This document shows positions 3,244-39,561 of a stretch of DNA of 64,000 bases, one piece after another; within the stretch, counting starts at the first letter, position 1; the number at the start of each line of letters is the position of its first letter. The translations under genes were made by a program, and so were the position numbers. The DNA is from Hemileia vastatrix. Its lineage: Eukaryota > Basidiomycota > Pucciniomycetes > Pucciniales > Zaghouaniaceae. The notes beneath the pieces were generated by a model. That model made no database searches. It was not told the origin of the DNA and worked only from the letters and a program-made list of their open reading frames with translations. The stretch lies in assembly GCA_030280995.1 (NCBI GenBank), contig JASXTE010000016.1:24823501-24887500 (forward strand), read 5' to 3'.

Positions 3244-3254
3244 CTCCCTCACTC
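3244..3254 (-). other. Polypurine tract of element A
   Basis: On the minus strand GAGTGAGGGAG ends exactly at the start of the 3' LTR. It is the expected plus-strand DNA primer. Element G has GTGAGGGAG at the same place. Confidence 0.75.
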
Positions 3255-3278
3255 TAAAAAAACAATAAAAAAAAAATG

Positions 3279-14913: not shown

Positions 14914-14918
14914 TATTA

Positions 14919-15689
14919 TGTTGCTGATATATTATTAAAAGTTTGTTTTTATTTCCAGAAATAAAAATGGCACCATCTATCAGGTCTATATGTATCAAAA
15001 AACAATGGAAGTTCTGTTCTGGTGGGGGGACCCCTTCTAGCATGTGATATCAATTATTGTAGTTAAATATTGTTAAATTATACATAAAAATCCATTAAAT
15101 ACATAGTGAATCATTGAAAAAATTATTAAATTTACATAAAAGAAAGTAGGAATTTTTTTGCTTAAACTTTTTCTTCATTAATTTAAATTGTAATGGTGTT
15201 ATAAATGTGAGGGGGGCTTTTTTTATGTGAAATTTTAATTTTGTTAAACTATTTTCTGCTTCAATGGAGCCTACAAATATAAAATTTAATTTTATGAACT
15301 CTTGTATTAAATGGTCCCAGATATTTTAAACTCTCATGGATTAGTAAAACATATCTCTCTGTGCACATTTTTACTAACTCAAATATCAATAAATTTAAGG
15401 GACCTAAACCAAAATTGGATGTTTAAAATATTTCTAAAAATTATATAATATATAAACATCTTTTTTTGGTAAATTTCAGATTTCATGTTAAATTTAGCAC
15501 TGTTTGTGGCTGGTTAGGTGTTCAAAGATCACCCCAAACTTCTTCTTTAACAAAATTGAGAAATTTCTATTAAGAAAGCTATGTGAATGAAAGGTTCCAT
15601 AAAAAATTTATATTTATTTTTTCAAACCTTTCAAAAAGTTATAAACTACCAACATTCAAGGATAAAAAGCGGAATCACTTATGATGGTA
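14919..15689. other. Spacer between facing Harbinger copies
   Basis: This is AT-rich DNA without a recognisable gene. It is bounded on both sides by TATTA, the apparent target duplications of the two Harbinger ends. Confidence 0.5.
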
Positions 15690-16139
15690 TATTAGGGGTA
15701 TCAATGTTCAGGGATCCGCAATTATGGATCAGGAATTTTTTTCCCTGGGATCGGACATTATTAATTTTGGAAGATTCTTAACCACTAGCCCCAGGGCTAG
15801 TGGATAAGGAAACAATGATTATTCATTATCCCGCCTCTTATAACCCAATTTCCGTTCCTAATTCCTGATCCCAAACTCATCACATCCATAATGGATTTTT
15901 AAGAAAGTCACATCACTTATAATTGCTGATGCCATCCTTAAGAATTCTGTCACTCTATGATACTAAATTTTGGTGTCAAACACATAAAATTTTTTCTCAT
16001 CCTTATGTGGTTCTTCACTCTCTGATACTTAATTTTGGTGACAAACACATAACATTTTTTTCTTTCTACACACCCCACCTGCTCACTTGGTGGCAAATTC
16101 CCACTTCCCACTCATCACCTAAACCTTCTACCAAAAATA

Positions 16140-17320
16140 ATGAAGCACCTCTCTACTTCGAAGCAACTTCACACGGCTATTAATTCTATCACTCTAGTTT
16201 TAGCCTCTGACTCTGATTCTGACTCTGGTTTGGAAGACACTTTAGCTTATATGTTTTATCTTTCAAAAAAGGGTTACATCATCCCAATGGGGACAAATAT
16301 TTATCATGATCCCAGATATGAACTTAACTCCATTCTCAACATTCCTCAACCAAACTTCACTCAACTATTTTGAATTTCTCCTAATTCTTTTTTCAAACTT
16401 TTTCAACTCATCTCCAATCATCCTATCTTCCATCATCATTCTCATAAAAAACAGTTTGATCCTGCCTTTTAACTTGCTGTTGCACTATGTAGCTCTAGTT
16501 CAAATGGAAATGGTGCTGCTGCAAGACATTTAGATAATTTTTTTACCATATGATATGGAACTGTCATATAATAAACCAAGCACTGCATGATTGCTATCCT
16601 TTCTCTCAAGTCTCAAACACTTGCTTGGAAAACTACAAAACAGCACTTGAATCCTCTCAAGTAATTCAAGACAAATGTTTCCCTTAATGTGTAGGTTTTG
16701 TTGGTGCTCCAACTATGATTTTGAGTCAAAAGCCTGCTCATGATGTCAACCATTATTTTGATCACAAAAAAAGGTTTTTTCAAAATGTTTTCCAATTTCT
16801 TATCTTTCATATACTAACTTTTTATCTTCTTTGTAGATAATTTATTGCTGTTCAACTTGTCTGTGAAATCAACAAAAAGTTTATTGCTTTTCATAGTGAC
16901 TTCCCTGGCTCATGTCATGACTCTTCTGTCTTAAAAATAATGAGGATTTCTCAAAGTCCTGACTCATACTTTGACAAATATCAGTACCTCCTTTCAGACT
17001 CAGCATATTCAAGTGGAAAGTAAATTTTACCTGCTTTCTGTGGTGCAACCTTAGAAAATGACCCCAAAACCACCTTTTACTATCACCTTGTCGAATCAAG
17101 AGTACAGACTGAACAAACTATTGAGACTTTATAGGGAAGATTTTCTAGTCTCAAGGAATTCAGAATCCAATTTCAAAAAAAATGGAAATAAAAACTGCAA
17201 ATCATTGGATAATGACTTGCATTATACTTCAAAATATCATAGCTGATTTATGGGATGATTTGAATGATCTTTATGAAGTAGAGGATCCTGAACCAGCACC
17301 GGCTCTCCCCTCCCTTTAAT
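16140..17320 (+). pseudogene. Harbinger-type DDE transposase remnant, copy 2
   Basis: Starting at MKHLSTSKQ, several frames together show the family pattern. It includes SSSNGNGAAARHLDNFF, then VCEINKKFIAFHSDFPGSCH with DSSVL, SDSAY, FYYHLVESRVQTEQTIETL, and the end MTCIILQNIIADLWDDLND plus an acidic tail. A likely intron ends at the TTTGTAG near 16838. The residue that is Asp in copy 1 (VCDIKK) is Glu here (VCEINK). There are several stops, so the gene is dead. It is a close paralogue of copy 1 in inverted orientation. Confidence 0.72.
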
Positions 17321-17349
17321 CACAAAACATTCATTCAACTGCCATACAC

Positions 17350-18908
17350 TGTAGAAAGTTCTAAAGTACTAAGCAGTAGACACAATGCAAGATGGGTGGT
17401 TATTCTTTTCAATTTCTAAAAAGAAGCTCCTTCCACTCTTATTTTAAAGAGAGAGGAATAATGTGTAACACTAAAATCTGACTAGATAGTTTATAAGTTG
17501 AGAGATGAGTTAAAAGATAAAGAAAAACAAATATTACTATCTGGATATTTCTATTCTTAATAAGGGCTAATATCCACAGCTACTCCCTCTTGAAGCGATT
17601 TCTTTGAATATGCCTTATTATAGAAATAAAATAACTCTAATAATAGTTTTTCCTACTGAATCTATATATTCTCTCTGTGTTGCGCTTCTTCACTATACTA
17701 TATGGAATACACACAAAGACACACAAACACTAAAAGACTCAGAATATCTCCAATATGCTTTTAAACACTTAATCACAAAAAAATCCAATCTCTTACTTTT
17801 ATCAGAGTAATCACAAAAATAGACAAATCACTATATATCACAAAATATTTCAAAAGTATATAATAGGGGGTACCAAATTTAGAAATTTGTAATTCTTTAA
17901 AAAATATTTCAACACACCAAAAGAAAACCCCAAACTCAACATTAATTCTCACTAAAAAGATATTTTGGGGGCACAATATCGCATGTTTTAAAAAATAATC
18001 ATGGCTTATTTGGAGGGGAAAAGAGGTATTTTGAAATGAAATATTCCTAAATTTGAGACCCCCTAATATAAGGCACTAATATTTGTAATCTAATGACTGA
18101 TTAAAATAATAATTTTCCTATCCAAATACCACTACACTCCTCCTAGTAGATAGCCTTTCCTTCTTATATTTTTCAGTGCTCCAGACTCAGTTTGCTAGTG
18201 GATCTCCAGCACTTTCTCTAGCACCACATTAGTAAAACAATAACTAATCCATTAGTAAACTAAATACATGACTTGTAACAGCTACAGCACCCAAACATAC
18301 CCTATGCTTACTAATACTAGTATTAACTTGTTTCACTCATATTCCACATGCATGCTTGTGACTGTACCTTTGAATTTTTTCAGTGCTACTTCCCACATTG
18401 AAACCTTTCAGCACTGATCCTTGTCTCTTCAACTCTTGGGTAGTTTTGTGATTGAGTCCACATCCACATTTCTTCATTACTAAGTCCATAGTTCTGAAAA
18501 TTCACTTAACTTGTTAGCCTCTGCAACTTACATTAACTGTTTCAGTAAGTTACCACACTAGCTGCTATGCAGTGTACTATGTACTTGAGGTCTTCCTTGA
18601 GCTAAAATTCCTTCCTTAATGCATAACACACAATTATTGAAAACCCAAATCCATAATGTTCAGCGCTTGCACTCCTAAGTTGATAACACTCAATTCCCTT
18701 TGTGCGGCACATCTTTCCTTAAAATCTAAGTGCACAGACCCTAAATGCTCTTCCATGCTTCTCTTTCCCTTTGTTCTTTTAAAACCATAATCACATATAT
18801 AAAATAGGGCTATCTACTGCTCTATGATTCACCTTTGCTCTTCTTGGGGTACACAAGCTTATTGGTCCAAAATATAAGTTACCTGCAATGCATGTACCAC
18901 AATGCTCT
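17350..18908 (-). mobile_element. Truncated Copia-like element
   Basis: This block interrupts Harbinger copy 2 relative to copy 1. On the minus strand its 3' end shows a polypurine-like tract (CTTCAAGAGGGAGTAGC) followed by an LTR beginning TGTGGATATTAGCCC and ending TTTCTACA (17350-17578, 229 bp). That arrangement and size are typical of Ty1/copia. The 5' LTR is missing and I recognise no pol domain in the remaining 1.3 kb, so the class call is tentative. It contains a MITE. Confidence 0.45.
17866..18063. mobile_element. 198-bp MITE with 5-bp target duplication
   Basis: The terminal inverted repeats are GGGGGTACCAAATTTAGAAAT and, from the other end, GGGGGTCTCAAATTTAGGAAT (about 18 of 21 match). 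The flanks are TAATA on both sides (17861-17865 and 18064-18068). It has no coding capacity. The GGGGGT ends resemble the Harbinger ends nearby, so a Harbinger source of transposase is likely. Confidence 0.75.
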
Positions 18909-20639: not shown

Positions 20640-21440
20640 ATTCACCTTTCCCCACCTTTCTGCCCTTTTACCTCCTTTAGATGCTCTATTTTTTCCCTCT
20701 TTAGGCCCTTTATACCCCCCTTTACTCCCTTTTCCCTCCTTTAGGCATCCTCACCCCTCTCCCCCCCTCATCCCCCTATCCCCTCAACCACTTCCTCCCC
20801 TCCCCCCCTACCACCTTATTGCTTTCCACACTCTCCCCCCTCCCCCCTTATCCCTTTCCCCTCTCCTCCCTTTCCTCTCACCCTGCCTCCACCCCCCTTT
20901 TATCCCTAAACAAATCACTTAGAGATTTTTTTAGGGATTAAAGGGGGGAGGGGGAAAGGGATAAGGGGTAAGGGGAGAGGGGAGAGGGGGTAAGGGGAGA
21001 GGGGAGAGGGGAGAGGGGAGAGGGGAGAGGGGAGAGGGGAGAGGGGAGAGGGGAGAGGGGAGAGGGGAGAGGGGAGAGGGGAGAGGGGAGAGGGGAGAGG
21101 GGAGAGGGGAGAGGGGAGAGGGGAGAGGGGAGAGGGGAGAGGGGAGAGGGGAGAGGGGAGAGGGGAGAGGGGAGAGGGGAGAGGGGAGAGGGGAGAGGGG
21201 AGAGGGGAGAGGGGGGAAGGGGGAGAAGTGGTGGAGGGAAGAGGGGAATGAGGGGGGGGGGAAACAGGTGAGGTGGTATGAAGGGGGGGAAAGAGGTGTC
21301 TGAAGGAGGAAAAAGGTGCCTAAAGGGGGGAAAAGGGAGGAGGAACTGATGAAAAAAGGGGGTTAAGGGATTTTGAAGAGATCAAGAAGGGGAAGGAAAG
21401 ATTTGAGGACACCAAAAAGAGGGAAGGGTAATATGGGAGT
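20640..21440. repeat. Large pyrimidine/purine inverted repeat
   Basis: 20640-20915 is pyrimidine-rich (CCCCTTT-type) and 20938-21440 is its purine-rich counterpart. The centre is CCCCCCTTTTATCCCTAAA, about 18 bases, then TTTAGGGATTAAAGGGGGG. Outer landmarks also pair, for example CCTCCTTTAGGCATCCTC with GAGGTGTCTGAAGGAGG. The 117-codon Pro/Leu-rich frame in the left arm is a composition artefact. Confidence 0.75.
20994..21212. repeat. GGGGAGA satellite (about 31 copies)
   Basis: This is a perfect 7-bp tandem repeat of about 219 bp inside the purine arm. Runs of four G every seven bases make it a strong candidate for G-quadruplex formation and replication slippage. Confidence 0.95.
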
Positions 21441-25333: not shown

Positions 25334-26472
25334 TGTCAGCCAGGCTATTCCAGGAGTCCAGTAAATGATATACAAATTATAAAACCTTAAAGAGTGGGTA
25401 AGACTTGTATTTAATGAATATAACTTAATATTTTATTGCATAATGAAATTATATAAGAATTTTATTATATACAAGTGTTACATTAAATTTATTGGTTATA
25501 TATATTTTTATATACAATTAAATTGAGAATAATATAATATATTCTACAAATAATGGTGCATCTCTATGTATTTAATAATTATAAATTTATATTTAATTAA
25601 TTAAAAAACATATATTATAATTACAAGTGTAAAATTGATTTATAATATATTTAAATTAATTACTTAAATTTATATATTAAATAATACCTCTCATATGATA
25701 CTAAACAATAATTAAGGACGCTTCTTTTGACCCTTAATTGTGTTAGAAAAAACAAATAAATTAATTTGGACTAAATTGAGATTAATTGCTTGTTTTGTTG
25801 CGTCAAATTATTTTTTGTTTCACTTAAAATGTCCTTTAATCAGAATGTACTATCTTTTTGGAATTATATTTCTCATAGTTCCTATGTTTCCAATCTTGTT
25901 TAGTTATTCACTATTGTCACTTACTGATTTGGGAATTAATGGCGGGGAAATTGGATTCTTAATTGGGGTTTTAATTATTTGTTTCATGTTTTTCTCTATA
26001 TTGTTATGTTTCATTTACTCTTTTGATATATTTGTTTTATTCCATTCTAATCATTGTATTTACAAAGATAGTAGCGCTTCAGAGGACCCATTGCCTATGA
26101 AAGGGCCTTGGATAATCCCCTGTAGCATCATCACTTATTACACACTCAACAAATTAAATAACCATTTTATTACGTTTATATTTTTTTATTAGTAATACAA
26201 ATCTAATTAAAAGTCTATACAACAAATTAAAGGTTGCTTTAAGTCTGATAGTAATTAAAATTGTTTGCCGCGCAGAACCCTTACATTTAATAATATTATT
26301 GTTAATAAAATCTAAGTTTTTGTCACCTCTCAAAGTTGCTCACCGTTGTTTCCCTCTCAAATAAATTAAATATATATTTTTTTTGGTTTATTTCTTTATT
26401 TTCCCTTGTCCTCCTCCTTCTCTCCTCCTTTTTCTCCTATTTTTCTTACCTCTTCTAGACGACTGACCGACA
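25334..26472 (+). repeat. Solo LTR of the element A family
   Basis: This 1139-bp LTR runs TGTCAGCC...GACCGACA and is highly similar to both LTRs of A. A perfect duplication ATTTT lies at 25329-25333 and 26473-26477, and element C leader continues on both sides. Its TATA box is altered to TATGAAA. This LTR and its right flank are the source of the duplicated left arm of the window. Confidence 0.92.
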
Positions 26473-26513
26473 ATTTTTGTCGTCATTTGGAAAGGCCTCA
26501 AATTATTATCCGG

Positions 26514-27598
26514 TGTGGTCATCCAACATTGGCAGGGGCCTTTGTTGTGTGATTTGGCGCTGTTTGTGCATGTCTTAATTGACATCTGTTAAGGAATTGG
26601 GTATTTTTCTGGTTTTATTCCGTGGATATTGGGTCTGCGGGTATGTGGATACTATCATTGGATAGCCCTGGTTTTTCTCTATATTTTATGTCTTGTAGAC
26701 ATTTTTCATATTCTAAGTTTTAAGGGGTCATTTCCTCATTTTTCATTTATAAAAGATTGCTGTTTAATTTTTTTTTTGTGTTTTACGGGCTAAACTTAAG
26801 TCTTAGGGTTAAGTGCTTAGTACCATTGGATAGAGCTAATTTTTCTCTATATTTCATGTCTCAATGTTGTTATGGTGAAATTCCGTGTTTTAAAGGTTTT
26901 AGTAGTTGTAGCTAATTTTTCTAAGTAGATTAGTGGTTTTTATTGGTTTTCTGGCTTCAGGGAGGCCGAGCCACTTCAGGCGGCATCTCCGACGTTGGGT
27001 GGCCTGCCCGCCTCTGTTTTAGGAGGTTGGGGAGCGCTCCAGGAGGGTTTTTTATGAAATTTGGCGGGTACAGGTGCCAGATTGGTGGGTGCGCATGGGC
27101 TCTTAGTTAGTGGTCTGTGTGTACATAGTGAATAAGACAGTTTGGGGCAACCTTAATCATCATACAACGATCCGGAGGTGATCTCATTGTTCATCACTCA
27201 GTTTTCACTGTTTTCTGGCCACAATTGGCTGTGTTTGTTGCAAGTGAGTTCTTCATAACTTTGGCAACTGTTTTCTCTGTTATAGTCTTGCAAGCTATAG
27301 CAAGTATTATTGCTGTCTCTGGTGTGGATTTGCAGCCTACATCAAGTATCTTTGCTGTCTCTGGTGTGGACATTGTTCTACATTTCAGTTCTTTGGTCTG
27401 GTAGTCTATTTGGGGACTACTTTCTTGGCTCATCAAGCAGTCAAGTGTGTTAAAAAGGAGCTTTAGCAAAACAGGAACCAACTTACTTTAGCATGTAAAT
27501 CTCACTCTATTTTTCTAAAGGGACAGGAGATTTTCTCTCTGGTTTTTCTCCAACTCCCTTGGTCAATGCCTATAGCTAGCACTATAGGATTGTCTACA
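26514..27598 (+). repeat. 5' LTR of element B
   Basis: This 1085-bp LTR has ends TG...CA. It is nearly identical to B' (980-2064). Confidence 0.92.
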
Positions 27599-27602
27599 TT
27601 TC

Positions 27603-27620
27603 TGGCGCCCAACGTGGGGT
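27603..27620 (+). other. Primer binding site of element B
   Basis: TGGCGCCCAACGTGGGGT starts four bases after the LTR. It matches the classical primer site for tRNA-Lys1,2 in all but perhaps the last base. Confidence 0.8.
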
Positions 27621-27689
27621 AGAACTTGCTAGTTCTTTGGAATCTCTGTTTTCTTTGGTTGGCTCTCTTTGGTGTTTTGGACTGGAAGA

Positions 27690-30071
27690 ATGGCTTCTGG
27701 TTCTTCTATTCCTGTAGTGACTGTCAGTGGGGGAGATGGTGCTCCTGCTGTGATGGTTAGGAAGTGTGTAAGGATTAAAACTTGGGATGGTACCAAGTTT
27801 AATGGGGAGGATGTCAAGTGGTTTCTAGAGAAGTATGAAACTGCTGCTGGAGTGGATGGTGCTTCCTACCTGGACATGGTGAAGCAGATTATCTTCTTCA
27901 TTGGTGATAGGTAAGTGGAGAAGGAGATTGTGGCCATGTCTGGCTACAAGAAGAGGGATTGGAAATTGTTGTGTAGGGAAATGGTGGATAGATGGGGTGT
28001 CAGGTTCACTATGGTGGATTTGAACAAGGTTGTCAGTGAATGGCAATCTTATGGTGGTGTTGGTAACTTAAGTAGTTACAGAATGTTTCTGCTACAGTTT
28101 GATCCTGTGGTGGAATATTTGGTGGAAGTGGAGGAGCTGGCACATGAAAATGCTGCCAAGGATGTTTTTTGGTCTGCCCTGGCTAGAGATGTCAGGATGG
28201 ATGTGTTGAAGGAGTTGTCAAGAAAGTAATTGATGAAGACTCTTTCTAATGGGGACCAGAAGTTTCCTGACTTGGATAAGGTGAAGGAGGCTGTTGAGGC
28301 CCATTTGAAGTTATTGGCTGTGGACACCTATCAGGAGGGGTGTGCCAAGTATGTCAGCAAAGTCAGTGAGGCTTTGGCTGAAGAGGAAGTTAGGGAGAAG
28401 AAGGAGGAGAAGAATTTGGTGCAGGTTCCCAAACAGGAGAGGGACCCAATGGTGGAGAAGTTGGCTGATATTACAAAGTAGCTGCACATTTTTGTTCAGG
28501 AGGCCAAGAAGGTTAATAAGGCACCTTCTCAGCCTAGAGATTTTGAAAGGAGGTCTGGTAGGAGTGATCCTTGGGTTTGCTATTATAGCAGTAGGAGGCG
28601 GAACAGGTCCAATGATTGTTGGGCACTGAACAGAGATGTGTCTGAAGGAAAAGTGGAGTTTGATGGCAGGGTTTTTAAGTTCCCTGATGGTTCTTTTGTG
28701 AAGCCCAGTGAGGGGCAGGCTCCTGTGGATTTGGTCAGGAGAAGGGGTGGTCTCAATCAAAGGAGGCCAAGGTTTGAGGAGATTCCTGATCAGGGGAAGT
28801 CTTCTGTTAAGGTAGATGAGGACGTCAAGGGAAAGGGGAAGGAGGTCGATAAGGTCTCTTTTTCTACTTCCTTTGGTGGTTTGGAGTTGTATTCTTGTGG
28901 TGGACAGTCAAGTGGTGAATGCTTGGCTGGTGTTTATGATGTGGAAGCAGGAAAGGTGGGAAGGCCTAAGAGCAGTTCTCAGGCCCAACCAAAGCCAAAT
29001 GCTTCAAAGGGTGATCCTAAGCTGAGTGCAGCTAGGAAAAGGTACAGCAAAGAGGAGCTTTACAAGATGCAGAAAGGTATGGCTGACATGGGCCCCCCTA
29101 GTTTTGGTGCATTGGACCTGAATGGTGAGCCAATGCCAATGGAGGTGGATTCTGACTCCGAGAAGGATGTCCCTTTGGCTTCATTGCCAAAGCCTGTTGG
29201 AGTCAGAGGTTCTGGTGAGGGATCTGGGTTGGTTTCTGTTAATGGTAAATCTGTTGGTGGTGCTGGTCCTCAAGAATCTTCTAGGACCAAGGTGGTGAAG
29301 CAAAGAGCTCACTTTGAGAGGCCAGTAGTGTCTGGTCAAGTGAATTTTATGGACTCTGTCCTGGAAAGGATGAACCAGGGTCAGGTTTCCCTATCTTATA
29401 GGGAATTGTATGCTATCAGTCCAGGGTTGGCTGATAGGCAGAAGAAGTTGTTGACCAGGAGAAGGGTCTCTTCTGGTGAGGTAGAATACATTTGTGATTC
29501 TGCTGAAAAATTTGGTGAGGGGTTGGAAACTCATTTTTCTGCTCCTCTGGGATATGTCAATGTCACTCTGAATGGCAGGGAGGCAAGGGCATTGGTGGAT
29601 TCAGGTTCTCAGATATACCTGATTTCTTTGTTTGAGGCAACTCATATGGGCCTCCCCATCAAAACTGGTATTGGTGGGAATTTGAGAGGGATCGGTGGCC
29701 ATGTCACTGAATTGGTTGGAACTTCAGAGTTTGTGAAGTTAGACGTTGGAGGAGCCTCAGGGAAGGTTCATTTTTACATTGCTAAAGGTAATGTAAAAGC
29801 AGTTTTGGGTGGGCCATTCTTGATGGATTTTTGGGCAAGAATAGGTTATCAATTTGATTTGGGAATCAGTTTGGAGTTGACTGGTGAAGACAAAAGGAGG
29901 CTTCACATGAGGTTATCATCCCCTGGAGAGGATGGTTGGGAGACTAGGCCTGGTTTATCTTCAATGTGCCAGTGCATGGATTGCTGCAGGAGAAGGAAGG
30001 AAGTGGGTGCTGCCTCTGGTTTTTTGGAGTGCGGCTCTGGCTCTATTGAGAGTCTGTCTTTTTTAGAGTAA
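27690..30071 (+). pseudogene. Gag and aspartic protease of element B
   Basis: One frame runs from MASGSS to 30071, interrupted only by three stops (27912 TAA, 28227 TAA, 28479 TAG); each could come from a Gln codon by a C-to-T change. The zinc knuckle near 28578-28620 is damaged: CYYSSRRRNRSNDC has Ser and Asn where the family has Cys and His. Towards the C-terminus, NGREARALVDSGSQIYLIS is the protease active site, with VLGGPFLMDFW downstream. Gag packages RNA and the protease would process the polyprotein. The same stops occur in B'. Confidence 0.8.
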
Positions 30072-30775
30072 TGAGGGCTGATCACCCTAGTGCTACAACC
30101 TCTCCCCAAGATGAGGAAATCCCAGGTTGTAGTAGGTCAGCTCCCTTGGAGATATACCAAGTGGATTTTCAACTTTCTCTTTTTAATGTTTCTCTTCTCT
30201 TCAAGTATTCATCAAGTTTTTTATCAATTCTCTGTTCTCTATCAAGATTCTTAATTATTTTTAATTCAAGTTTAAAGAAGAAGATTGGTTATATATCTTT
30301 ATTGAAAGATATGCGGAAAAGTTTTGGGGCGGTGAGATTGGGGTCTAAAAGTAAGTCCTCCCAATTGTGCACCGCTAGGGTTTCTTCTACACCTTTCAAA
30401 AACATTACCTGGGCCACACCTGTGGGCATTGGGGAAACCCCTGGTTATTTTTTTAGGACAGAAGAAAACTCAAGAAAAGAAGATTAAAATTTCAAGATAA
30501 TTCAAGAAAATCAAGAAAAAAATCTGAAGATAATGAAGAAAGAAGATGCAAAATATTTTTGTGAAGATCGTCAAGATCTATTTTTGGGCCTCCAGCATAA
30601 GGTTAAACTGCAAAAGATGTTGAAGAAAGAATATCATCAAGATCTATTTTTGGACCTCCAGCATGAGGATAAACTGCACAATTTTAGAAGATGTGTTTCA
30701 GAAGATGAATCAAGATTTGAAGATTTGGAAGTTGTAAGTGAGGATGAAGATGTGGAATTGTAGAAAAGTTTTGGA
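30072..30775 (+). repeat. Linker with 133-bp direct repeat
   Basis: Between the protease and RT frames lie two copies of a 133-bp sequence (30316-30448 and 30763-30895, period 447 bp). Both carry AAAGTAAGTCCTCCC and ACCGCTAGGGTTTCTTC. Inside the unit is a shorter repeat with CAAGATCTATTTTTGG and CCTCCAGCAT (about 30570 and 30638). The result looks like a partial tandem duplication that displaced pol from gag. The GTAAGT in both copies could be a donor, but I see no clear acceptor. Confidence 0.65.
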
Positions 30776-31840
30776 GTGGTGAGATTGGGGTGTAAAAGTA
30801 AGTCCTCCCAATTGTGCACCGCTAGGGTTTCTTCTACACCTTTCAAAAACATTACCTTGGCCACACTTGTGAGCAATGGGGAAACCCTTGGTTTATGTTC
30901 CAGGTCTGGTGGTGAAGATTTCCTGAAGATCCCTCAAGTTGAAGGTGGAGCGGCAAAGTATAAGAAGGTAGCGCAGAAGATTAGGCCTGTCAATGAGCCT
31001 ATGCCTGTGGGTTTGAATCAGCCTTTGAAGAGACCTCCTTTGTCGAGAGATCCATACTGTACTCCTTTGGTGAAGAATACTCCAGAATTTGTAGAGACGG
31101 CTAGGGTGACTGTGGAAAGATTGAAAGTTGTTAATTTTGGTCCTGATGGGTGGTTGTCTGAGGAAGAAAAGAAGTTGTTGTTGCACGTTATTGTGCTAAG
31201 GGAAAAAGATGTGGCATTTGTTGAGGAGGAAAGGGGTGTATTGAAGCACTCTTATGGGGAACCTTACTTGATTCCTGTGGGTTGTCATGAACCTTGGCAA
31301 ATCAAACCTATTCCAATTTCAGCCACTTTTAGAGAGTATTGTGTGGAGATTGTTAGGGAAAGAGTCAGGACTGGGTTATATGAACAATCAACATCCAGTT
31401 ACTCAAGTCCGGTGTTCTGTTTAAAGAAGCAGAATGGAAAGTTGCGGGTGGTTCATGATCTTAGAGCCTTGAATAGAGTCACTAGCAAGGACGCTGGTAT
31501 GCCACCAAGTGCAGAGGATTTTGTTGAAGCTTTCACTGGAAGGGTGTGTTATGGTTGGGGTTATATTATGGGTGGTTATGATGAGAGGGAACTACATATG
31601 GATTCAAGGCCTCTCACAACTTTTGAGACTCCTTTGGGAAGATTTCAGCTAACTATGTTGCCTCAAGGAGCAACTAATTCAGTGGCAGTTTATCAAGCAC
31701 AGATGGCTTGGATTTTGCAGGATGAGGTTCCTACTCATGCTGGTATTTTTATTGATGATGGTGTAATTAAAGGACCATCCACTGATTATGGTAATGAGGT
31801 TTCAGCGGAGAACATTGGCATAAGGTGGTTTGTGTGGTAA
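30776..31840 (+). pseudogene. Reverse transcriptase part of element B
   Basis: The frame contains RT motifs: SSYSSPVFCLKKQNGKLRVV, DLRALN, LTTFETPLGRFQLTMLPQGA and IFIDDGVIKGP (FIDD in place of YxDD). This form of RT is familiar from basidiomycete gypsy elements. The first catalytic Asp appears lost: the stretch before GGYDERELH reads YGWGYIM, where relatives have an Asp-Leu-Phe. The frame ends with TAA at 31838 and continues in the same frame into RNase H. It is probably inactive. Confidence 0.8.
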
Positions 31841-31861
31841 TATGCAATAACACTAGAGAGA

Positions 31862-33700
31862 GTGTTGTTCAGGATTGAAGAGGCTGGTTTGAACATTTCA
31901 GGGTCAAAATTCTGTTGTTGTGTTCCTGCTTTGGAAATTCTGGGTCATGTGGTATGTAAAGAGGGAAGAATTATGGAAAAGAGGAGGATTTATAAAATTC
32001 AGTCATGGCCAAGGCCTAAAAATACTACTGAAGTCAGGGGATTTTTTGGTGTATGTGTATATGTCAGGATTTTTATTAAGGATTTTTATTTGTTGGCTTC
32101 ACCTTTAAGAAGGTTGACCAGAAAAGATGCAGATTGGGAATGGACTGAAGAGTGCAAAGAGGCTTTTCAGAGGTTGAAAAAGGTTGTTGGGGAAGATATT
32201 GTTCTTCACAAGTTGGATTATGGTGTTGGTGCTGGAAAAATTTATCTGGCAGTGGACTCAAGTTATATTGCTGCTGGTGCTGTTTTGTCTCAGGAGGATA
32301 AGACTGGGAAGGTCAGGCCAGTAAGATATGAGTCTGTGGTGTTTAATGAGGTGGAATCTAGTTATTCTCAACCTAAGTTGGAATTGTGTGGCATAGCTAA
32401 AATTTTAAAGAAGCTACAGACGGTTTTGTGGGGGCAGCATTTTGAGCTGCAGGTGGATGCAAAATCTTTGGTTCAGATGATCAATACACCTAGTCTTCCA
32501 AATGCTCCAATGACTAGGTGGGTGGCATTTATTCAACATTTTTCTTTTGACCTGGTGCACAAACCAGGTAAAACTTTTACTATGCCTGATGGATTATCAA
32601 GGAGGCCCTTTACAGATGAAGATTCTGAGGCTGAAAAGTTTGATGAGGATGTTCCAGTGGTTAGGGCCAGCACAAAGGGTGCTGAAGATTTTTCTGACCT
32701 CCCCCAAGAGGCTAAACTTGCTGGATCTGATCTTGATTCTGGTGATCAGGATGTTTTTGTTGATGAAGATGGAGTTTTTGTTTGGGACAGCTCAAAAATG
32801 GAAATTGGTGTTTTTGTTTGTGAACTGGATTCTCACAAGGTTCAGTGGAAAGAGAAGGACGTTCCAAAATTTAAGGATTGGTGTCCTGGTTGGGCTGCTC
32901 AATTGGCTCATGTTCATACTGGTGATTTTGATGAAAGAATTGTACCCTTGGATGTGGTGTTGTTGGATTTTGAAGATGAGACCTGGGGTCAGTCTGGGTT
33001 TTATTTTATTTTGGTGGAATATCTGTTGACCTTGGAGAGGCCAGATAGTTGTGATGATGATACTTGGTTGGAAATCAAGAAGAAGAGTCCTGGATTTTAT
33101 GTGTCAGGAAGGCGGTTGATGAGGAGGAGACATCCTAATCCTCAAGTGGTGGTGACTCAAAAGAAGGGTCAAGAATTGGTTTTGAAGTCTTTGCATGAAG
33201 ACCTTGGTCATAGAGGCTTTGGGGAGACTTATAGAAGAGTAGCAGACAGATTTTGGTGGCCAGGTATGAAGTTGGCTGTGCAGGGTTGGGTTCAATCTGG
33301 TGAAGAATGTCAAAGAAGAAGTCACTTGAAACCTAAAAAGGTGGGCCGTGCTACTGGTGAATCAACTGTTTTTGGAAGGGTCAGTCTGGATGCTGTCCAT
33401 ATTAAAGAGGGCAGGTATAAATACTTGATTGTTGCTAGGGATAATTTGTCTGGTTGGGTTGAGGCAGTTCCTCTGGTTAATTTAACTGCCAAGAATGTGG
33501 CAGAGTTTTTGAAGAGGGAGTGGATTTATAGGTATGGGTTGATGAAGTTGGTGACTGTTGATGGCGGGCCAGAGTTTGGGACCAAATTTAAAGAAGCTGT
33601 GGCTAGTTTTGGCTATAAAGTTAGAGTGGCTACACCGTATTATCCTGAAGCTGAAGGCATGGTTAAAGAGGCCATCAAGTTATCAAGAATTCTTTGGTGA
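31862..33700 (+). CDS. RNase H and integrase part of element B
   Basis: It opens with the RT thumb region (LEILGHVV, FFGVCVYVRIFIKDF), then RNase H (IYLAVDSSYIAAGAVLSQE, QPKLELCGIAK, ELQVDAKSLVQMI, MPDGLSRRP). A Glu/Asp-rich linker follows, then an integrase finger (HEDLGHRGFGETYRR ... GEECQRR). The first Cys of the HHCC finger reads Ser or Gly, so the finger is damaged. The integrase core residues are SLDAVHI, VDGGPEF and EAEGMVKE (D-D-E). The frame stops at 33698-33700 and continues one frame over from 33694. This is a decayed part of one polyprotein, not a separate gene. Confidence 0.8.
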   Translation: MLFRIEEAGLNISGSKFCCCVPALEILGHVVCKEGRIMEKRRIYKIQSWPRPKNTTEVRGFFGVCVYVRIFIKDFYLLASPLRRLTRKDADWEWTEECKEAFQRLKKVVGEDIVLHKLDYGVGAGKIYLAVDSSYIAAGAVLSQEDKTGKVRPVRYESVVFNEVESSYSQPKLELCGIAKILKKLQTVLWGQHFELQVDAKSLVQMINTPSLPNAPMTRWVAFIQHFSFDLVHKPGKTFTMPDGLSRRPFTDEDSEAEKFDEDVPVVRASTKGAEDFSDLPQEAKLAGSDLDSGDQDVFVDEDGVFVWDSSKMEIGVFVCELDSHKVQWKEKDVPKFKDWCPGWAAQLAHVHTGDFDERIVPLDVVLLDFEDETWGQSGFYFILVEYLLTLERPDSCDDDTWLEIKKKSPGFYVSGRRLMRRRHPNPQVVVTQKKGQELVLKSLHEDLGHRGFGETYRRVADRFWWPGMKLAVQGWVQSGEECQRRSHLKPKKVGRATGESTVFGRVSLDAVHIKEGRYKYLIVARDNLSGWVEAVPLVNLTAKNVAEFLKREWIYRYGLMKLVTVDGGPEFGTKFKEAVASFGYKVRVATPYYPEAEGMVKEAIKLSRILW

Positions 33701-34254
33701 AGATGTTTGGAGATAGTGCTGAAAAGTGGAGGCATTATTTACCCTTGGTTTTATTTGCTGATAGGGTCACTGTGAAGAGGACAACTGGCTATTCTCCTTA
33801 TGAGTTAATTTTTGGTCAGAAAGCGGTTCTACCAGTGGACTTGAAAGGTGTCTCTTATCTTGGAATTGATTGGGATGATGTGCACTCAACAGAAGATTTG
33901 CTCTGTGCCAGGATGCAACAGTTGGAATGTAGAGAGGAATGTCAAGAGAAGGCATACTCTAGAATGATGAAGATTAGGAATCAATCAGTCAGGTACTGGG
34001 ACAAGAAGTTGGCTCATAGACTCAGGAATCCCTTGAAACCTGGTTGTTTGGTTTTGGTGTATAATAGAAGTTTGGAGAGTCAGTGGGGGAAAATGATTGC
34101 TGACAGATGGAATGGACCTTACAGAGTCAGATCTCAGGCGTCTGGAGGTTCTTATGTTTTGGAAGAGTTGGATGGTGCAGTCTTGAAAAAGAGGGTGGCT
34201 GCAGACCAAGTGAAGAGGTTTTATCCCAGAGGCACTAGGCATGAAGAAGATTGA
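33694..34254 (+). CDS. Integrase C-terminal part of element B
   Basis: It continues the integrase after a one-base frame change: RTTGYSPYELIFGQKAVLP (GPY/F-type approach region), then a C-terminal module ending WNGPYRVRSQASGGSYVLEE and VKRFYPRG. Ending in VKRFYPR before a stop is normal for this lineage; no chromodomain is present. pol ends here and 4.2 kb of other sequence precedes the 3' LTR. Confidence 0.8.
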   Translation: MVKMFGDSAEKWRHYLPLVLFADRVTVKRTTGYSPYELIFGQKAVLPVDLKGVSYLGIDWDDVHSTEDLLCARMQQLECREECQEKAYSRMMKIRNQSVRYWDKKLAHRLRNPLKPGCLVLVYNRSLESQWGKMIADRWNGPYRVRSQASGGSYVLEELDGAVLKKRVAADQVKRFYPRGTRHEED

Positions 34255-34836
34255 CTCCGCAATGAGGATAAATTACGGACCATTCTTTAATTTTGGTTTT
34301 TTTTGTGGTGATGCTATGCATCTGTTTGTTGAAAACTTTTCTTAGAGGGTACCCATGGGTGGAGCCTCAAGATTTTGTCTTGGAAAGTGTGGGGGTGACT
34401 GATGGGCTGGCTGCCCTATCAACAGTTACCCCAGATTGTCTGTTTCCAACCCTTTTTTTTAATTTGGTTGAACCCTAGTATTGGTTTCTTTTCACAGGTT
34501 TTAGTCCTCTATGACTTTTAACTGGGATTTCTTCTGATTTTTATGTGCTGGTCTCTTCAATCTTATTGGTTTTGGTTTTTTTTGTGTTGGACGTTGTGAT
34601 TTGTTAGGTAGAAGGTACCCAGGGGGGGCTTCTAGATTTTATTTTGGCAAGTGTGGGGGTAACTGATGAGCTGGCTGCTCTGTAGAACAGTTACCCCAGA
34701 ATGTCTGTCTCAAGTCTTTTGTTTTTCCTAGTTGAATTCTAGTTCTGTTGTTTATTATTCAGGTTTCAAGTCCGCTATGACTTTAAACTGGTTTGGGACT
34801 GGCTTCTTTATCTTTGGTTCTTTCAGATTGGTGGTG

Positions 34837-34892
34837 GATCACTGGTGGTCTCCCATCATTTTTACTTATTGGAGGGAGCCCACCCAGTGATC
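34837..34892. other. Long hairpin in B 3' region
   Basis: GATCACTGGTGGTCTCCC pairs with GGGAGCCCACCCAGTGATC over 17 pairs with one bulge and one mismatch. The 19-base loop has TCAT and TTGG near its ends, as in the two later hairpins. Confidence 0.75.
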
Positions 34893-35069
34893 ATTTCTAT
34901 GGATCGGACTTTCCCTTATTGGACCATCTATGGAGCTGGACTTTCTTTGATTTTGCAGTTATATTTTTGCTAGATAGCAGTATTAGATTATTTTCTTTTT
35001 TATCTTTTTTTCTTTTTATTTTTTTATGGGGGTTGTTTAAAATTATAAAATCAAAAATATAGGGTTTTA

Positions 35070-35139
35070 CCACATCAGGGTCACCTGGATGTGGGCAAGC
35101 ATTGGTGGGGAAAGGATCATCAATTGGTCAGGCAATGCT
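35070..35139. other. Double hairpin, first copy
   Basis: CCACATC/GATGTGG (35070-35076 and 35088-35094) is followed by AGCATTG/CAATGCT (35098-35104 and 35133-35139). The loop contains TCATCAATTGG. A second copy at 35266 keeps both stems. Confidence 0.75.
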
Positions 35140-35265
35140 ATTTTCTTTTTTATTTATTATTTATTTTATTTGTTTCTGTGTTTCATTATTTTTTTTTATT
35201 TTCTGAATTTTTAATTTTTTTGAATTTTGTTTTCTGTTAACCATTTAACAGAATTAATTGTGTAT

Positions 35266-35335
35266 CCACATCAAGGTGCATTTGGATGTGGGTAAGGTAT
35301 CAGGGGATCGGCTCATCAATTGGCTGGGGGATACC
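35266..35335. other. Double hairpin, second copy
   Basis: CCACATC/GATGTGG (35266-35272 and 35285-35291) is followed by GGTATC/GATACC (35296-35301 and 35330-35335). The loop again has TCATCAATTGG. Relative to the first copy the second stem has changed at five of six base pairs yet still pairs fully. Confidence 0.75.
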
Positions 35336-35467
35336 ATTTGTATTATTTTTTATATTTTATTTTATTTCATTTTATTTATAAAATTTTAATTAATATATTA
35401 GTACGTCTTAAAAAAAAAAAAATTCTGAAATTATTTTTATTAATTGTTTTATATTATTATTTTGTTT

Positions 35468-37037
35468 CTAATATTTTTGGAGGAGCTCATTGTCTGGATG
35501 ATGAAGCTTCTGGGGGCTGGTCTGGATTGTGATGATGTTTTTGTTTTTTGTTGGGATTGTGGGAAGCACTGTGTTCTTTGAAGTGCATCCTGCTGGAGAG
35601 ATTATAGGGATTGTAATGGTCAGGAATTGGATTAGAGAGAAGTTCAGAGGAGGAAGAAGAAGAGGCAGGAATGAGTGCTGGAGGGTGTGTTTAATGATCT
35701 TAGACATTTTCCAGTGGTCGTCCAGTAGGCTATTTCTCAGGGATTTTTCAAAGTCATTCAAAGGTCCATGGAGGGCAAAGGCTTTTAGCATGTTGGAACA
35801 CATGGTGCTTAGGTGTTTCTTCATGTCTCCATAATTCAGGGTCAAAGAAGTTTTAAGAGGTTGGCTAACTCCAATAATAGATTCAGGAGGAGGGGTGCCA
35901 ACTAGACAAGAAGAATTGGATCAGTAATTATTTTTGTTGAAGAAATGGAATAATTAATTTGGTACTTACAGATTGGAAGCTCATCAAATCTTTAAGCAGC
36001 TGGGATTTGGATGTCTGACGATTTTGTAATGGTCATAGTGGGTGGATCAACTAGGGAAAGATATGGATTCTCATGGTCTTCCTCTTAAGGATCCTGAGAA
36101 GGTGAACTGGGATTCTGATGTTCCTGGGGCTTAGTTGGAGCAGTGAGATTGTTGTTGTTGTTGTGGTTGTTATTTCTGTTGGATTCAGCTGGAGGAGGTG
36201 CTGGTGATGGAGTACCAGGGTTGTTAAAGGATGGAGCAGGAGAGGGGGATTTGAAAGCAGATTGATCTCTTCTGGATGGAGATTTTGAAGAGATGGAACT
36301 GTCAGAAGAGTAGTTTGCTGACAGAAGAGAGGTGTAGTCTCTTTGTCTTAGTTAGGGACGAGGTTTTTGTTGTGGAGCAGTGTGTGGTTTTCTGGTTTCT
36401 TCTTGGGATTCTCTGGCAGGTCTCTTAGAAATCTGTGAAATTTTGGTTCTTTTGGAATTTGGAAGGGTGGATTGCATTGCTCTGGGAGCAGTAGGAGGTA
36501 GTTGGGTTGAGTTGCTGTTGTTGTCTGAATGAATTTGGATGTTTTCTGGCCGTTTTTGGAGGTTTTGGCCCTGATTTTCACTGTTTGGTGAGGAGGGCAG
36601 GCCGCCTGGACGCGATCTAGAAGCCTGGGAGTTGATTTTGAAGCTTTTGGAGCTAATTTGGTGGAGATAAAAGCAGTTTCTTGGGAAGCAAAGGCTGGTC
36701 TTTTAGGAAGAGTGCGGGAAGCTGAGCTTCTGGATCTTCTGGAAGGAGCAGAAGATAGAGTGAAAGAGGAAGGACCAAGCTCTGGGGATCTGGTAGGGGA
36801 TCTGGAGATGTATTTGTGGGAAGGTGAAGGAGGAGGAATAGGGTAGTTGGCGTCTCTGTCACATCTTTTCTTTTTGGAATAGCAAGAATCACAAGCCCTG
36901 TTGTAGAATTTGGATTCAGGATTTGGAAGAGTGAATGTGCAAGGTCTGCACATGTGGATGCACTTTTTGCAGGCATAGTCCTTGGGAGCATTGAAGCAAG
37001 GGAGAGTAGAAGGGTTAACATCAGGAGATCCAGCCAT
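35468..37037 (-). pseudogene. Antisense cysteine-cluster gene 1 in element B
   Basis: It is read from 37037 towards 35468, opposite to pol. The N-terminus has ACKKCIHMCRPC, a 16-residue spacer and ACDSCYSKKKRCD, a CX2CX6C pattern like one half of a fungal Zn2Cys6 cluster, next to a basic run. A long Ser/Pro/Asn/Gln-rich middle follows, after a frame change near 36640. The frame carries three TAA stops (near 36352, 36085 and 35987) that could derive from CAA. A clean intron of 68 bp (35902-35969, GTAAGT...CTAG) joins two exons in phase. The last exon is helical (NYGDMKKHLSTMCSNMLKAF). It is probably a DNA- or RNA-binding accessory protein, now broken. Confidence 0.6.
35902..35969 (-). other. 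Intron of antisense gene 1
   Basis: Minus-strand GTAAGTACC...TTACTGATCC...TTGTCTAG is 68 bp. Removing it keeps the frame (DELPI to GTPPPESIIG). Size and signals fit basidiomycete introns. Confidence 0.7.
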
Positions 37038-37782
37038 GATCTGTGGTAAAAAAAGATGATGAAAAGGGATAGGAGGAGATTTTTGTCAGTGATGGGTAGA
37101 TGATGAAGTGAAGGTGAAAGTTCAGCAGGTTGGCTGTAGAGGTGTGCTGCATAAAATTGGCTGCGTCTATTTTATGCAAAAATCAAGACAGTCCATCAAG
37201 ACTCTAAACTGAAAAAAAAGATATGGTATCAAGGCAGTCCATCAAGACTTTAAACTGAAATCTGGTTTCTGTTAGTCTTCCAAGACTTTAAACTGGCTGG
37301 TTTCAATATTTTATCAATACTAGTCCGTCAAGACTTTAAACTGAACACTGTGTTAGTCCCCCAAGACTTTTAACTGAGGGTTGTAAGTCCCCCAAGATTT
37401 TAAACTGAGGGAAAAGTTTTTGTTGTTGGAGTTGGTTTTGAAAGATTGGTGGAGGGTATCCACAGGGGGAGCCTCTGAATTTAGCAAAGGCAAGTTTGGG
37501 GGTAATTGATGGCTGGCAGCTCTATTCAAAATTACCCCAGAATGTTAGTTTTTTCTCTGTGTCTTAATTTGGTTGATCTCTGGTTCTGGGTTTATGATTT
37601 AGGTTTTGAGTCCCCCAAGACTTTAAACTGAGGGTTTTTGAGTCCCCCAAGACTTTAAACTGTGGGTTTTTGAGTCCCCCAAGACTATAAAATGAGGATG
37701 GTCCCCCAAGACTTAAAACTGAGGGTTTTTTGTGGTTACATCCTATAGAGGGTGTGGTCAATTTTTCTTTTCTGAATCAAAC
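37038..37782. repeat. Cluster of AGTCC-CAAGACTTTAAACTG repeats
   Basis: Ten copies of a 22-bp motif AGTCCNNCAAGACTTTAAACTG start at 37190, 37236, 37274, 37322, 37355, 37386, 37609, 37641, 37673 and 37700. Two looser copies occur at 34503 and 34769. AGTC/GACT can pair and CTTTAAA is near-palindromic. The cluster lies just upstream of antisense gene 1 and just downstream of antisense gene 2. Confidence 0.8.
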
Positions 37783-38459
37783 TCAAGTACTAGTGGAATT
37801 ACAGAGGGAATCAAGTGATGAAATAAAGTGTTCAGAATAAGCCTTGAACTGGTGAATGAGGTGTCTTCTGTTCTCAATGTCCTGTGGATCTCTAGAAGGA
37901 GTGGATTGGAAGTATTGAAGCAGAAGTTGTTTCTGTTGAGATGTGTGTTGTTGGAACTTGGCCTTGATAGTGGGCAAGTGCGTTGGTGTTGGTGGTGCAA
38001 TGGATCCTACATTGTTATCATCACTATCAGAAGAGGGAGGAACTGAGAAGTTATCAGTTTTAAAGTTGAAGGAAGAAGAGAAAGTTCTTTACCATTACAT
38101 GGACCAGGGATGGGGGAACTAGTTGTTTTATGGGTTGTGCCACTCTTCTGGGAAGGTTGGAGCCTTTTGATTAATCTGGGTATCAGGATGGATGGCCTAG
38201 ATCTTTTGGTGCTGGCAGAAGAAAGACCAGGTTGAGGTGGAGGTGAATCTGTTGTGGAAGAAAGTGGACCAGGTCTGTGGCAGGTCTTTTTTCTGGATTG
38301 GCAGACATCACAGGACATTCTGTATGGATGGACAGGTGGTGTTATGGCCCAGATTAAATTATTGTTGATGAAGTATTGGCAGGGGCCCATTTCAGAGGAA
38401 GATTTGGGAAGAAGGTTAAACATGGTGGTTGGATGAAGAAAGAATGTGGATATTATCAA
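37783..38459 (-). CDS. Antisense cysteine-cluster gene 2 in element B
   Basis: This is an intact two-exon gene on the strand opposite to pol: exon 1 38459-38093, intron 38092-38043 (50 bp, GTAAAG...CTGATAACTTCTCAG), exon 2 38042-37783, giving 208 residues. Near residues 24-60 it has GPCQYF and then MSCDVCQSRKKTCHRPG, a CX2CX6C cluster with a basic patch as in Zn2Cys6 factors. A Ser/Pro/Lys-rich linker (STKRSRPSILIPRLIKRLQ) and an acidic segment SSDSDDN precede a helical C-terminus (QQKQLLLQYFQSTPSRDPQD). It starts 12 bp inside the 3' LTR, so an antisense LTR promoter is plausible. It is related to antisense gene 1 in domain order. The start could also be an internal Met. Function unknown; I infer nucleic-acid binding. 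Confidence 0.68.
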
Positions 38460-38461
38460 TT

Positions 38462-38471
38462 GGAAGGAGGA
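38462..38471 (+). other. Polypurine tract of element B
   Basis: GGAAGGAGGA ends at the 3' LTR start. It also overlaps the region upstream of the antisense gene 2 start. Confidence 0.75.
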
Positions 38472-39557
38472 TGTGGTCTTCCAACACTAGCAGGGGCCTT
38501 TGTTGTGTGATTTGGCGCTGTTTGTGCATGTCTTAATTGACATCTGTTAAGGAATTGGGTATTTTTCTAATTTTATTCCGTGGATATTGGGTCTGCGGGT
38601 ATGTGGGTACTATCATTGGATGGCCCTGGTTTTTCTCTATATTTTATGTCTCGAAGACATTTTTCATATTCAAAGTTTTAAGGGGTCATTTCCTCATTTT
38701 TCATTTATAAAAGATTGCTGTTTAATTTTGTTTTACGTGTTTTACGGGCTAACCTTAAGTCTTAGGGTTAAGTGCTTAGTACCATTGGATAGAGCTAATT
38801 TTTCTCTATATTTCATGTCACAATGTTGTTATAGTGAAATTCCTTGTTTTAAAGGTTTTAGTAGTTGTATCTAATTTTTCTAAGTAGATTAGTGGTTTTT
38901 ATTGGTTTTCTGGCTTCAGGGAGGCCGGGCCGCTTCAGGCAGCATCTCTGACGTTAGGCGGCCCGCCCGCCTCTGTTTTAGGAGGTTGGGGAGCGCTCCA
39001 GGAGGGTTTTTTATGCAATTTGGCAGGTACAGGTGCCAGATTGGTGGGTGCGCATGGGCTCTTAGTTAGTGGTCTGTGTGTACATAGTGAATAAGACAGT
39101 TTGGGGCAACCTTAATCATCATACAACCATCCGGAGGTGATCTCATTGTTCTTCACTCAGTTTTCACTTTTTTCTGGCCACAATTGGCTGTGTTTGTTGC
39201 AAGTGAGTTCTTCATAACTTTGGCAACTGTTTTCTCTGTTATAGTCTTGCAAGCTATAGCAAGTATTATTGCTTTCTCTGGTGTGGATTTGCAGCCTACA
39301 TCAAGTATCTTTGCTGTCTCTGGTGTGGACTTTGTTTAACATTTCAGTTCTTTGGTCTGGTAGTCTATCTGGGGACTACTTTCTTGGCTCATCAAGCAGT
39401 CAAGTGTGTTAAACAGGAGCTTTAGCAAAACAGGAACCAACTTACTTTAGCAAGTAAATCTCACTCTATTTTTCTAAAGGGACAGGGGATTTTCTCTCTG
39501 GTTTTTCTCCAACTCCCTTGGTCAAGGCCTATAGCTAGTACTATAGGATTGTCTACA
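38472..39557 (+). repeat. 3' LTR of element B
   Basis: This 1086-bp LTR, TGTGGTCTTC...GTCTACA, has scattered differences from the 5' LTR, for example at its start and around 38650-38760. It is followed by the CCGG duplication. Confidence 0.92.
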
Positions 39558-39561
39558 CCGG

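What the first reader, a model, noticed from the sequence alone, without database searches (positions are those of the whole stretch)
35468..38459. Gypsy element carrying two antisense, spliced cysteine-cluster genes
Seen: between integrase and 3' LTR of element B, the opposite strand holds two genes with the same plan: a CX2CX6C cluster with a basic patch (CDSCYSKKKRCD; CDVCQSRKKTCH), a Ser/Pro-rich linker, then a helical C-terminus. Each has a short intron with proper signals; removal of the intron of gene 2 leaves an intact 208-residue frame, and that of gene 1 joins in phase. Known: Zn2Cys6 fungal regulators use this type of cluster; antisense ORFs are known in some plant retrotransposons. 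Inference: B carries its own nucleic-acid-binding regulators, with the 3' LTR acting as antisense promoter. The cargo is duplicated (one copy intact, one decayed), hinting at selection for it. I know of no description of this arrangement.
Basis: partly seen in the sequence, partly recalled or inferred. Interest (0 to 1): 0.88.

Follow-up and report, generated by a model that had tools for sequence, protein, structure and literature searches.

The report
Antisense zinc-cluster genes in rust retrotransposon
A retrotransposon in what looks like a rust fungus seems to carry two extra genes written backwards, each with a zinc-binding-type motif and a likely intron, plus a row of repeated palindromes that might be their binding sites; backward extra genes are known in other retrotransposons, and no other copy could be examined here.

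Summary
The observation largely holds. Element B (26514-39557) is a complete Ty3/Gypsy insertion whose 4.2 kb between pol and 3' LTR carry two antisense ORFs, each with a CX2CX6C basic cluster, a linker, a plausible phase-1 intron and a helical C-terminal exon. ORF length and cysteine motif exceed shuffled controls. Corrections: gene 2 is 196 aa from its ATG; gene 1 is broken; the two align only around the cluster, so they are old paralogues at best; gene 2 being open is no evidence of selection. New: gene 1 has two CX2CX6C half-clusters, in the reverse of Zn2Cys6 order (a lead only); AGTC-N6-GACT motifs form an array ending beside a TATA-like box before gene 1; three repeat units share an RNA hairpin. 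The closest named fungal pol relatives are rusts. The arrangement is known: antisense ORFs between pol and 3' LTR, often with tandem repeats, are typical of plant Retand, and Boty (Botrytis) carries antisense brtn. A spliced two-gene zinc-cluster version in a probable rust element was not in the listings of my ten searches. No other copy, transcript or homologue could be examined; function is inferred.

The parts
26514..27598 (+). 5' LTR of element B (TG...CA); CCGG just outside both LTRs (26510-26513 and 39558-39561)
27603..27619 (+). primer-binding-site-like tract TGGCGCCCAACGTGGGG
   Evidence: sequence printed; tRNA not identified
28482..34251 (+). protease, RT, RNase H, integrase region, broken into several frames
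   Evidence: Pfam, ORFs, tblastn of six relatives
34343..34791 (+). two of three ~200-bp units, each with one 21-bp motif (34503-34523, 34769-34789) and one RNA hairpin (34392-34432, 34656-34697)
35651..35901 (-). gene 1 exon 2: predicted two-helix C-terminus (low confidence, pLDDT 64)
   Evidence: end of the exon uncertain
35902..35969 (-). gene 1 intron, 68 nt, GTAAGT...ACTGAT...TAG, phase 1
35970..36372 (-). gene 1 linker in a second frame, with three in-frame TAA stops (broken)
36348..37037 (-). gene 1 5' ORF (229 aa): CX2CX6C at residues 23-33, CX2CX6C at 49-59, Ser/Pro-rich basic linker
37167..37177 (-). TATA-like GCATAAAATAG 140 nt before the gene 1 ATG
   Evidence: resemblance only
37190..37720 (-). 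array of ten 21-bp motifs AGTTTAAAGTC-TTGGGG-GACT; the third ~200-bp unit lies inside it (37417-37630, hairpin about 37499-37538)
37786..38042 (-). gene 2 exon 2: predicted two-helix hairpin
38043..38092 (-). gene 2 intron, 50 nt, GTAAAG...ACTGAT...CAG, phase 1
38093..38423 (-). gene 2 exon 1: CX2CX6C (CDVCQSRKKTCH) and linker
38462..38471 (+). polypurine tract GGAAGGAGGA touching the 3' LTR
38472..39557 (+). 3' LTR; candidate antisense promoter for gene 2 (inferred)

Best explanation
Element B is a Ty3/Gypsy retrotransposon of a probable rust fungus with two antisense accessory genes between pol and the 3' LTR. Each would make a small nuclear regulator: an N-terminal zinc-cluster module that binds nucleic acid, a disordered Ser/Pro-rich linker and a C-terminal two-helix dimerisation module. 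Gene 2 would be transcribed from the 3' LTR backwards, gene 1 from its own TATA-like promoter behind an array of palindromic AGTC-N6-GACT sites. Dimers of the gene products would bind that array and tune antisense, and so sense, transcription of the element. The introns persist because the packaged genomic RNA is the other strand and cannot be spliced there; the genes must then use their own antisense transcripts. Shown: anatomy, ORF and motif excess, intron signals, array. Inferred: transcription, splicing, zinc, DNA binding, dimerisation, regulation. My odds: real protein-coding antisense genes 0.8; nucleic-acid-binding regulators 0.5; own array as target 0.2.
For: ORF and cysteine-motif excess over shuffles. 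Codon-position signal in gene 1 frame 0 (36631-37037) and in 36084-36345 (0 of 400 shuffles each). Same plan in both genes, with a phase-1 intron before a predicted two-helix exon. Cluster alignment above all 1000 shuffles. Zn_clus first-half match for gene 1, E 0.016 and 0.0016; the only PDB match at E 10 or better for its first 80 aa is AlcR, a Zn2Cys6 activator (E 6.4, weak). AGTC-N6-GACT: 10 of 10 exact window matches lie in this region; half-sites differ from consensus in 2 of 96 positions, spacer in 14 of 72, Fisher P 0.0002, copies not independent. TATA-like box next to the array. Precedent: Grande's antisense gene has its own promoter and a nuclear product (PMC7264820).
Against: No homologue at E 1 or better for gene 2 (171 candidates) or the gene 1 ORF (331 candidates), although the pol control gave 101 at E 1e-5 or better, 18 of them named as rust proteins; these searches need shared 5-residue words and similar length. 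No Pfam match above cut-off. PDB: none for the whole gene 1 ORF, only five weak unrelated matches for the gene 2 N-terminus (best E 0.13). Codon-position signal is weak or absent in gene 2 (17 and 64 of 400), gene 1 exon 2 (48), 35966-36080 (88) and 36373-36650 (200). Intron-like donors are not in clear excess: 3 against 1.5 +/- 1.2 in shuffles. Masking cysteines leaves the cluster alignment marginal. Gene 1 is broken. Foldseek found nothing at E 0.001 or better for the gene 2 hairpin (best 0.98). The array may be only a tandem expansion. One copy only.
Confidence: 0.45

Rival explanations
1. The proteins act on the element's sense RNA (export, packaging or chaperoning) rather than on DNA; their targets are the conserved hairpins in the three ~200-bp units, and AGTC-N6-GACT is a small hairpin too.
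For: The sense-strand fold keeps the hairpin in all three units, with two pairs changed on both sides and one G.U wobble kept; the antisense fold has the same two double changes but breaks that wobble pair. Shuffles folding at least as well: 1, 10 and 35 of 200 (z -2.7, -1.9, -0.9). The clusters are basic.
Against: Only three copies; covariation term small (-0.98); the strand preference rests on very few pairs. The Zn_clus resemblance points to DNA binders. The two half-site changes in the array are not compensated.
Confidence: 0.15
2. Passenger cargo: a host zinc-cluster gene captured by this copy or subfamily, with no role in the element.
For: Introns, weak Zn_clus match, gene 1 decayed, no other copy seen.
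Against: No host-like homologue found. Two diverged genes with one plan plus an array suggest long residence. A capture through spliced sense mRNA would lack introns and lie in sense (inference).
Confidence: 0.17
3. Antisense non-coding transcription unit that makes double-stranded or small RNA; the ORFs are by-products.
For: Antisense transcripts can act as RNA (discussed in PMC7264820). Gene 1 is broken, and codon signal in gene 2 is weak.
Against: ORF, motif and layout excess.
Confidence: 0.12
4. Chance ORFs on a C-rich, G-poor strand with chance CX2CX6C motifs.
For: The antisense strand has 552 G in 4220 bases, which lowers stop frequency and favours Ser/Pro codons.
Against: Composition-preserving shuffles rarely reach it; two non-overlapping CX2CX6C in the gene 1 N-terminus in 0.024% of 200000 shuffles.
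Confidence: 0.06

Closest known systems
Plant Retand elements (PMC11963269, abstract and passages seen)
   Same: Long pol-3' LTR region, antisense ORFs there for putative DNA-binding proteins, tandem repeats in about half of them
   Different: Plants; Transposase 28 domain; 'zinc' and 'intron' do not occur in that paper's main text (word search). B is from a probable rust, and its antisense ORFs match no Pfam family above cut-off
Boty with antisense gene brtn, Botrytis (Zhao 2011, seen only as cited in PMC7264820, PMC8365987, PMC4227169)
   Same: Fungal Gypsy element with an antisense gene; the review places it between pol and 3' LTR
   Different: Ascomycete element, one gene named in what I saw; brtn sequence and any intron were not available to compare
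Maize Grande gene23 (review PMC7264820)
   Same: Antisense accessory gene with own promoter and nuclear product
   Different: Plant element; no relation tested
Fungal Zn2Cys6 regulators (PF00172; AlcR)
   Same: First half CX2CX6C with basic patch and CD ending (gene 1)
   Different: Second half missing after the first; gene 1 has a CX2CX6C upstream instead; gene 2 has one half only
HTLV antisense gene HBZ (mentioned in passages of PMC11963269; antisense promoter in 3' LTR in PMC7264820)
   Same: Antisense regulator made from the 3' LTR of a retroelement
   Different: HBZ is spliced and a bZIP protein (recalled); no sequence relation tested

Membership tests
Ty3/Gypsy LTR retrotransposon | LTRs, PBS, PPT, target duplication, protease-RT-RNase H-integrase order | tested here: met
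   protein frames are broken
Antisense accessory ORF between pol and 3' LTR (aORF-3R) | ORF antisense to gag-pol, between pol and 3' LTR | tested here: met
Antisense accessory ORF between pol and 3' LTR (aORF-3R) | present in most copies of the element family | not tested
   Own-genome search did not complete (14 requests); the left copy at 1-2064 is cut off by the window edge before this region
[quoted passage not shown]
Retand | Transposase 28 domain in the antisense ORF | tested here: not met
   No Pfam match at E 1 or better for gene 1 ORF, gene 2 exon 1 ORF or gene 1 exon 2 ORF; gene 2 exon 2 gave only two unrelated weak matches
Retand | RT placed in the plant Retand lineage | not tested
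   No tree built; closest named fungal pol relatives are rusts
Zn2Cys6 (PF00172) | CX2CX6C, short linker, then CX2CX6-8C | tested here: not met
   Gene 1: no cysteine after C59 in the 135 residues printed, upstream CX2CX6C instead; gene 2: no second half after CX2CX6C
Zn2Cys6 (PF00172) | score above the curated cut-off of 21 bits | tested here: not met
   Gene 1 15.8 bits, 18.9 bits for a 23-aa piece, profile positions 1-16 of 39; gene 2 no match
Boty brtn | homology to BRTN protein | not testable with these tools
   paper not held, no BRTN sequence fetched

The most novel reading that the evidence does not exclude
Rust-fungus Gypsy elements carry a self-contained feedback circuit: two spliced antisense genes make permuted (second half first) zinc-cluster dimers that read an AGTC-N6-GACT operator array inside the element, while conserved sense-RNA hairpins handle the genomic RNA; introns survive because the genes run against the packaged strand.
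Probability: 0.12. Interest if true: 0.82.

Novelty: new variant of a known kind. Interest (0 to 1): 0.5.

Why it matters
The role of antisense genes in LTR retrotransposons is still open: the review of plant elements says their functions are unknown. This element offers a candidate protein plan, a candidate target site and built-in intron tests in one place. If the genes recur across rust elements, it would suggest that such regulators arose in parallel in plants, ascomycetes and rusts, in genomes such as that of Austropuccinia psidii, where TEs, mainly Gypsy, cover over 90% (abstract passage).

Tried and rejected
Homologue searches with gene 2 and the gene 1 ORF gave nothing at E 1 or better. 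Scans of viral contigs with pol and gene 1 and of genome contigs with gene 1 gave no relatives; a 16-bp motif scan of viral contigs gave 8 contigs, about what chance allows (my estimate), not followed. NCBIfam, PDB by sequence, Rfam and Foldseek gave nothing convincing. Idea that further introns remove gene 1's stops: the simple scan found no intron-like site near them. Idea that AGTC-N8-GACT in both LTRs (27403, 39362) is a second operator: one further N8 match lies outside B, and with 13 spacings tried I count it as chance. Upstream half-cluster of gene 1 as a Zn2Cys6 second half: no Pfam match alone, AlcR similarity 3.4 bits, so the permuted reading is a lead only. Looser matches to the 21-bp motif (up to 6 mismatches) also fall at 32718 and 47252 (minus) and 34780 (plus); I left them out of the 12 copies counted. 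Literature: ten searches, seen as listings, some of them cut (for example 12 of 128 papers, 8 of 251); none of the listed titles or abstract starts described a rust element with antisense zinc-cluster genes.

Full report
What is there. Element B spans 26514-39557. Its LTRs (26514-27598, 38472-39557) are 96.3% identical, with 39 substitutions in 1085 aligned sites and a K2P distance of 0.037. They run TG...CA, a PBS-like tract follows the 5' LTR, a GGAAGGAGGA tract touches the 3' LTR, and CCGG flanks both ends. Protease, RT, RNase H and integrase domains lie on the + strand, in several broken frames. The distance from pol to the 3' LTR is 4220 bp, against 38 bp and 281 bp in two other Gypsy elements of the window. 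Of 101 pol relatives at E 1e-5 or better, 18 carry rust names (13 Austropuccinia psidii, 5 Puccinia), 23 carry other organism names (other fungi, plants, animals, one bacterial MAG) and 60 name no organism; only the 7990 candidates sharing most words were scored. The rust names are the closest named fungal ones. I infer a rust-fungus host, species unknown.

The two antisense genes. Gene 2 reads from an ATG at 38423, has a 50-nt GT..AG intron (38092-38043) and gives 196 aa. Gene 1 starts at 37037 and is open for 229 aa, but its coding frame appears to change before 36373, and the later frame holds three TAA stops; a 68-nt intron (35969-35902) then joins in phase to a helical exon. After about 35670 the tail may run on in yet another frame; I leave that open. 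Both introns are phase 1 (by exon lengths), carry ACTGAT upstream of the acceptor, and stand just before exons predicted as two helices: gene 2 exon 2 with mean pLDDT 81.8, gene 1 exon 2 with 64.2, both from single sequences.

Is it more than chance. In 2000 dinucleotide shuffles of the antisense strand of 34252-38471, 1 gave an ATG ORF of 229 aa or more and none gave four ORFs of 145 aa or more; one of the four real ones overlaps gene 1 in another frame. CX2CX6C occurs in 1 of 665 shuffled ORFs of 100 aa or more. Codon-position bias, tested against 400 mononucleotide shuffles each, is strong in gene 1's first frame (36631-37037) and in 36084-36345 (0 of 400 each); for the whole 229-aa ORF 13 of 400 reach it; it is weak in gene 2 (17 and 64), gene 1 exon 2 (48) and 35966-36080 (88), and absent at 36373-36650 (200). 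Non-coding controls: array 94, AT-rich stretch 327. Intron-like donors number 3, against a mean of 1.5 in shuffles, so the introns rest on their fit to the frames, not on excess.

The cluster. Gene 1 has cysteines at 14, 23, 26, 30, 33, 49, 52 and 59, which make two CX2CX6C motifs; random orders of the same 70 residues give two such motifs in 0.024% of 200000 trials. The second (CDSCYSKKKRCD) resembles the first half of Zn2Cys6 domains (Pfam Zn_clus positions 1-16 of 39, E 0.016 and 0.0016 for a 23-aa piece, both below the cut-off). The first, followed by TF, resembles the second half of AlcR, but only at 3.4 bits, and has no Pfam match alone. The order would be the reverse of the known domain. 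This is a lead, not a result. Gene 2 keeps one half only. The two genes align around the cluster above all 1000 shuffles, but 46 of 1000 reach the score with cysteines masked, and linkers and C-termini do not align. They are old paralogues or lookalikes, not a recent duplicate pair.

Array and hairpins. A 21-bp motif, AGTTTAAAGTCTTGGGGGACT, occurs ten times at 37720-37190 and once in each of two units near the end of pol, with looser matches elsewhere. All 10 exact AGTC-N6-GACT matches in the 64 kb lie in this region, eight in the array and two in the units. Half-sites depart from consensus in 2 of 96 positions, spacers in 14 of 72 (Fisher P 0.0002; the copies share ancestry, so this overstates it). 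A TATA-like GCATAAAATAG follows the last copy, 140 nt before gene 1's ATG. Three ~200-bp units (34343-34525, 34609-34791, 37417-37630; 72-78% identical) share a hairpin; on the sense strand two of its pairs change on both sides and one G.U wobble is kept. The antisense fold shows the same two double changes but breaks that wobble pair. Of 200 shuffles, 1, 10 and 35 fold at least as well as the three copies. Rfam has no match there at E 0.1 or better.

How it may work. An intron in a gene that runs against the genomic RNA cannot be spliced out during retrotransposition, so spliced antisense genes can persist and need their own transcripts (reasoning from the retrotransposition cycle). The simplest reading is a nuclear regulator pair that binds the element's own DNA, gene 1 under control of the array. 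Transcription, zinc, DNA binding and control are all inferred.

What is known. [quoted passage not shown] it calls their functions unknown and notes nuclear localisation and an own promoter for Grande. PMC11963269 (abstract and passages) reports at least one antisense ORF in every representative Retand element and tandem repeats in about half. PMC8365987 and PMC4227169 (passages) mention brtn; Zhao 2011 itself is not held. The rust TE paper PMC12210899 has no 'antisense' or 'zinc' in its main text (word search). So the arrangement is known; a spliced, two-gene, zinc-cluster version in a probable rust element was not in the listings, some of them cut, of my ten searches.

Limits. One copy. Gene 2's open frame is not evidence of selection: at this LTR divergence a frame of that length would often survive (inference). 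The lack of homologues may mean fast evolution, missing annotation, the limits of a word-based search, or no real gene.

Noticed in passing
34392-34432, 34656-34697, about 37499-37538 (+): Three copies of a conserved hairpin (GGGGUAACUG/CAGUUACCCC with an inner stem) in the sense RNA of element B, with two pairs changed on both sides; possible export or packaging signal.
   Followed up: partly
1-3243 and 25334-28577: Inverted copy, 99.1% identical, covering the junction of B's 5' LTR with another element's LTR; the identity ends near an LTR edge, which suggests recombination between inverted LTRs.
   Followed up: no
2105-11287: Element A: open 2062-aa gag-pol frame with a chromodomain (3282-9467, minus) and LTRs 99.5% identical; probably recently active, with no room for antisense genes.
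   Followed up: partly
13256-17353: Inverted repeat with 1.66-kb arms, 87% identical, 0.8 kb apart; could form a long hairpin RNA.
   Followed up: no
20945-21247: About 43 copies of GGGGAGA, with extreme GC skew.
   Followed up: no
30316-30457 and 30763-30904: 142-bp direct duplication, 91% identical, inside B's broken pol.
   Followed up: no
P0006 (public record, not in the window): A pol protein 67% identical over 43% of the query is filed under a Sphingobacteriaceae metagenome-assembled genome; probably fungal contamination.
   Followed up: no
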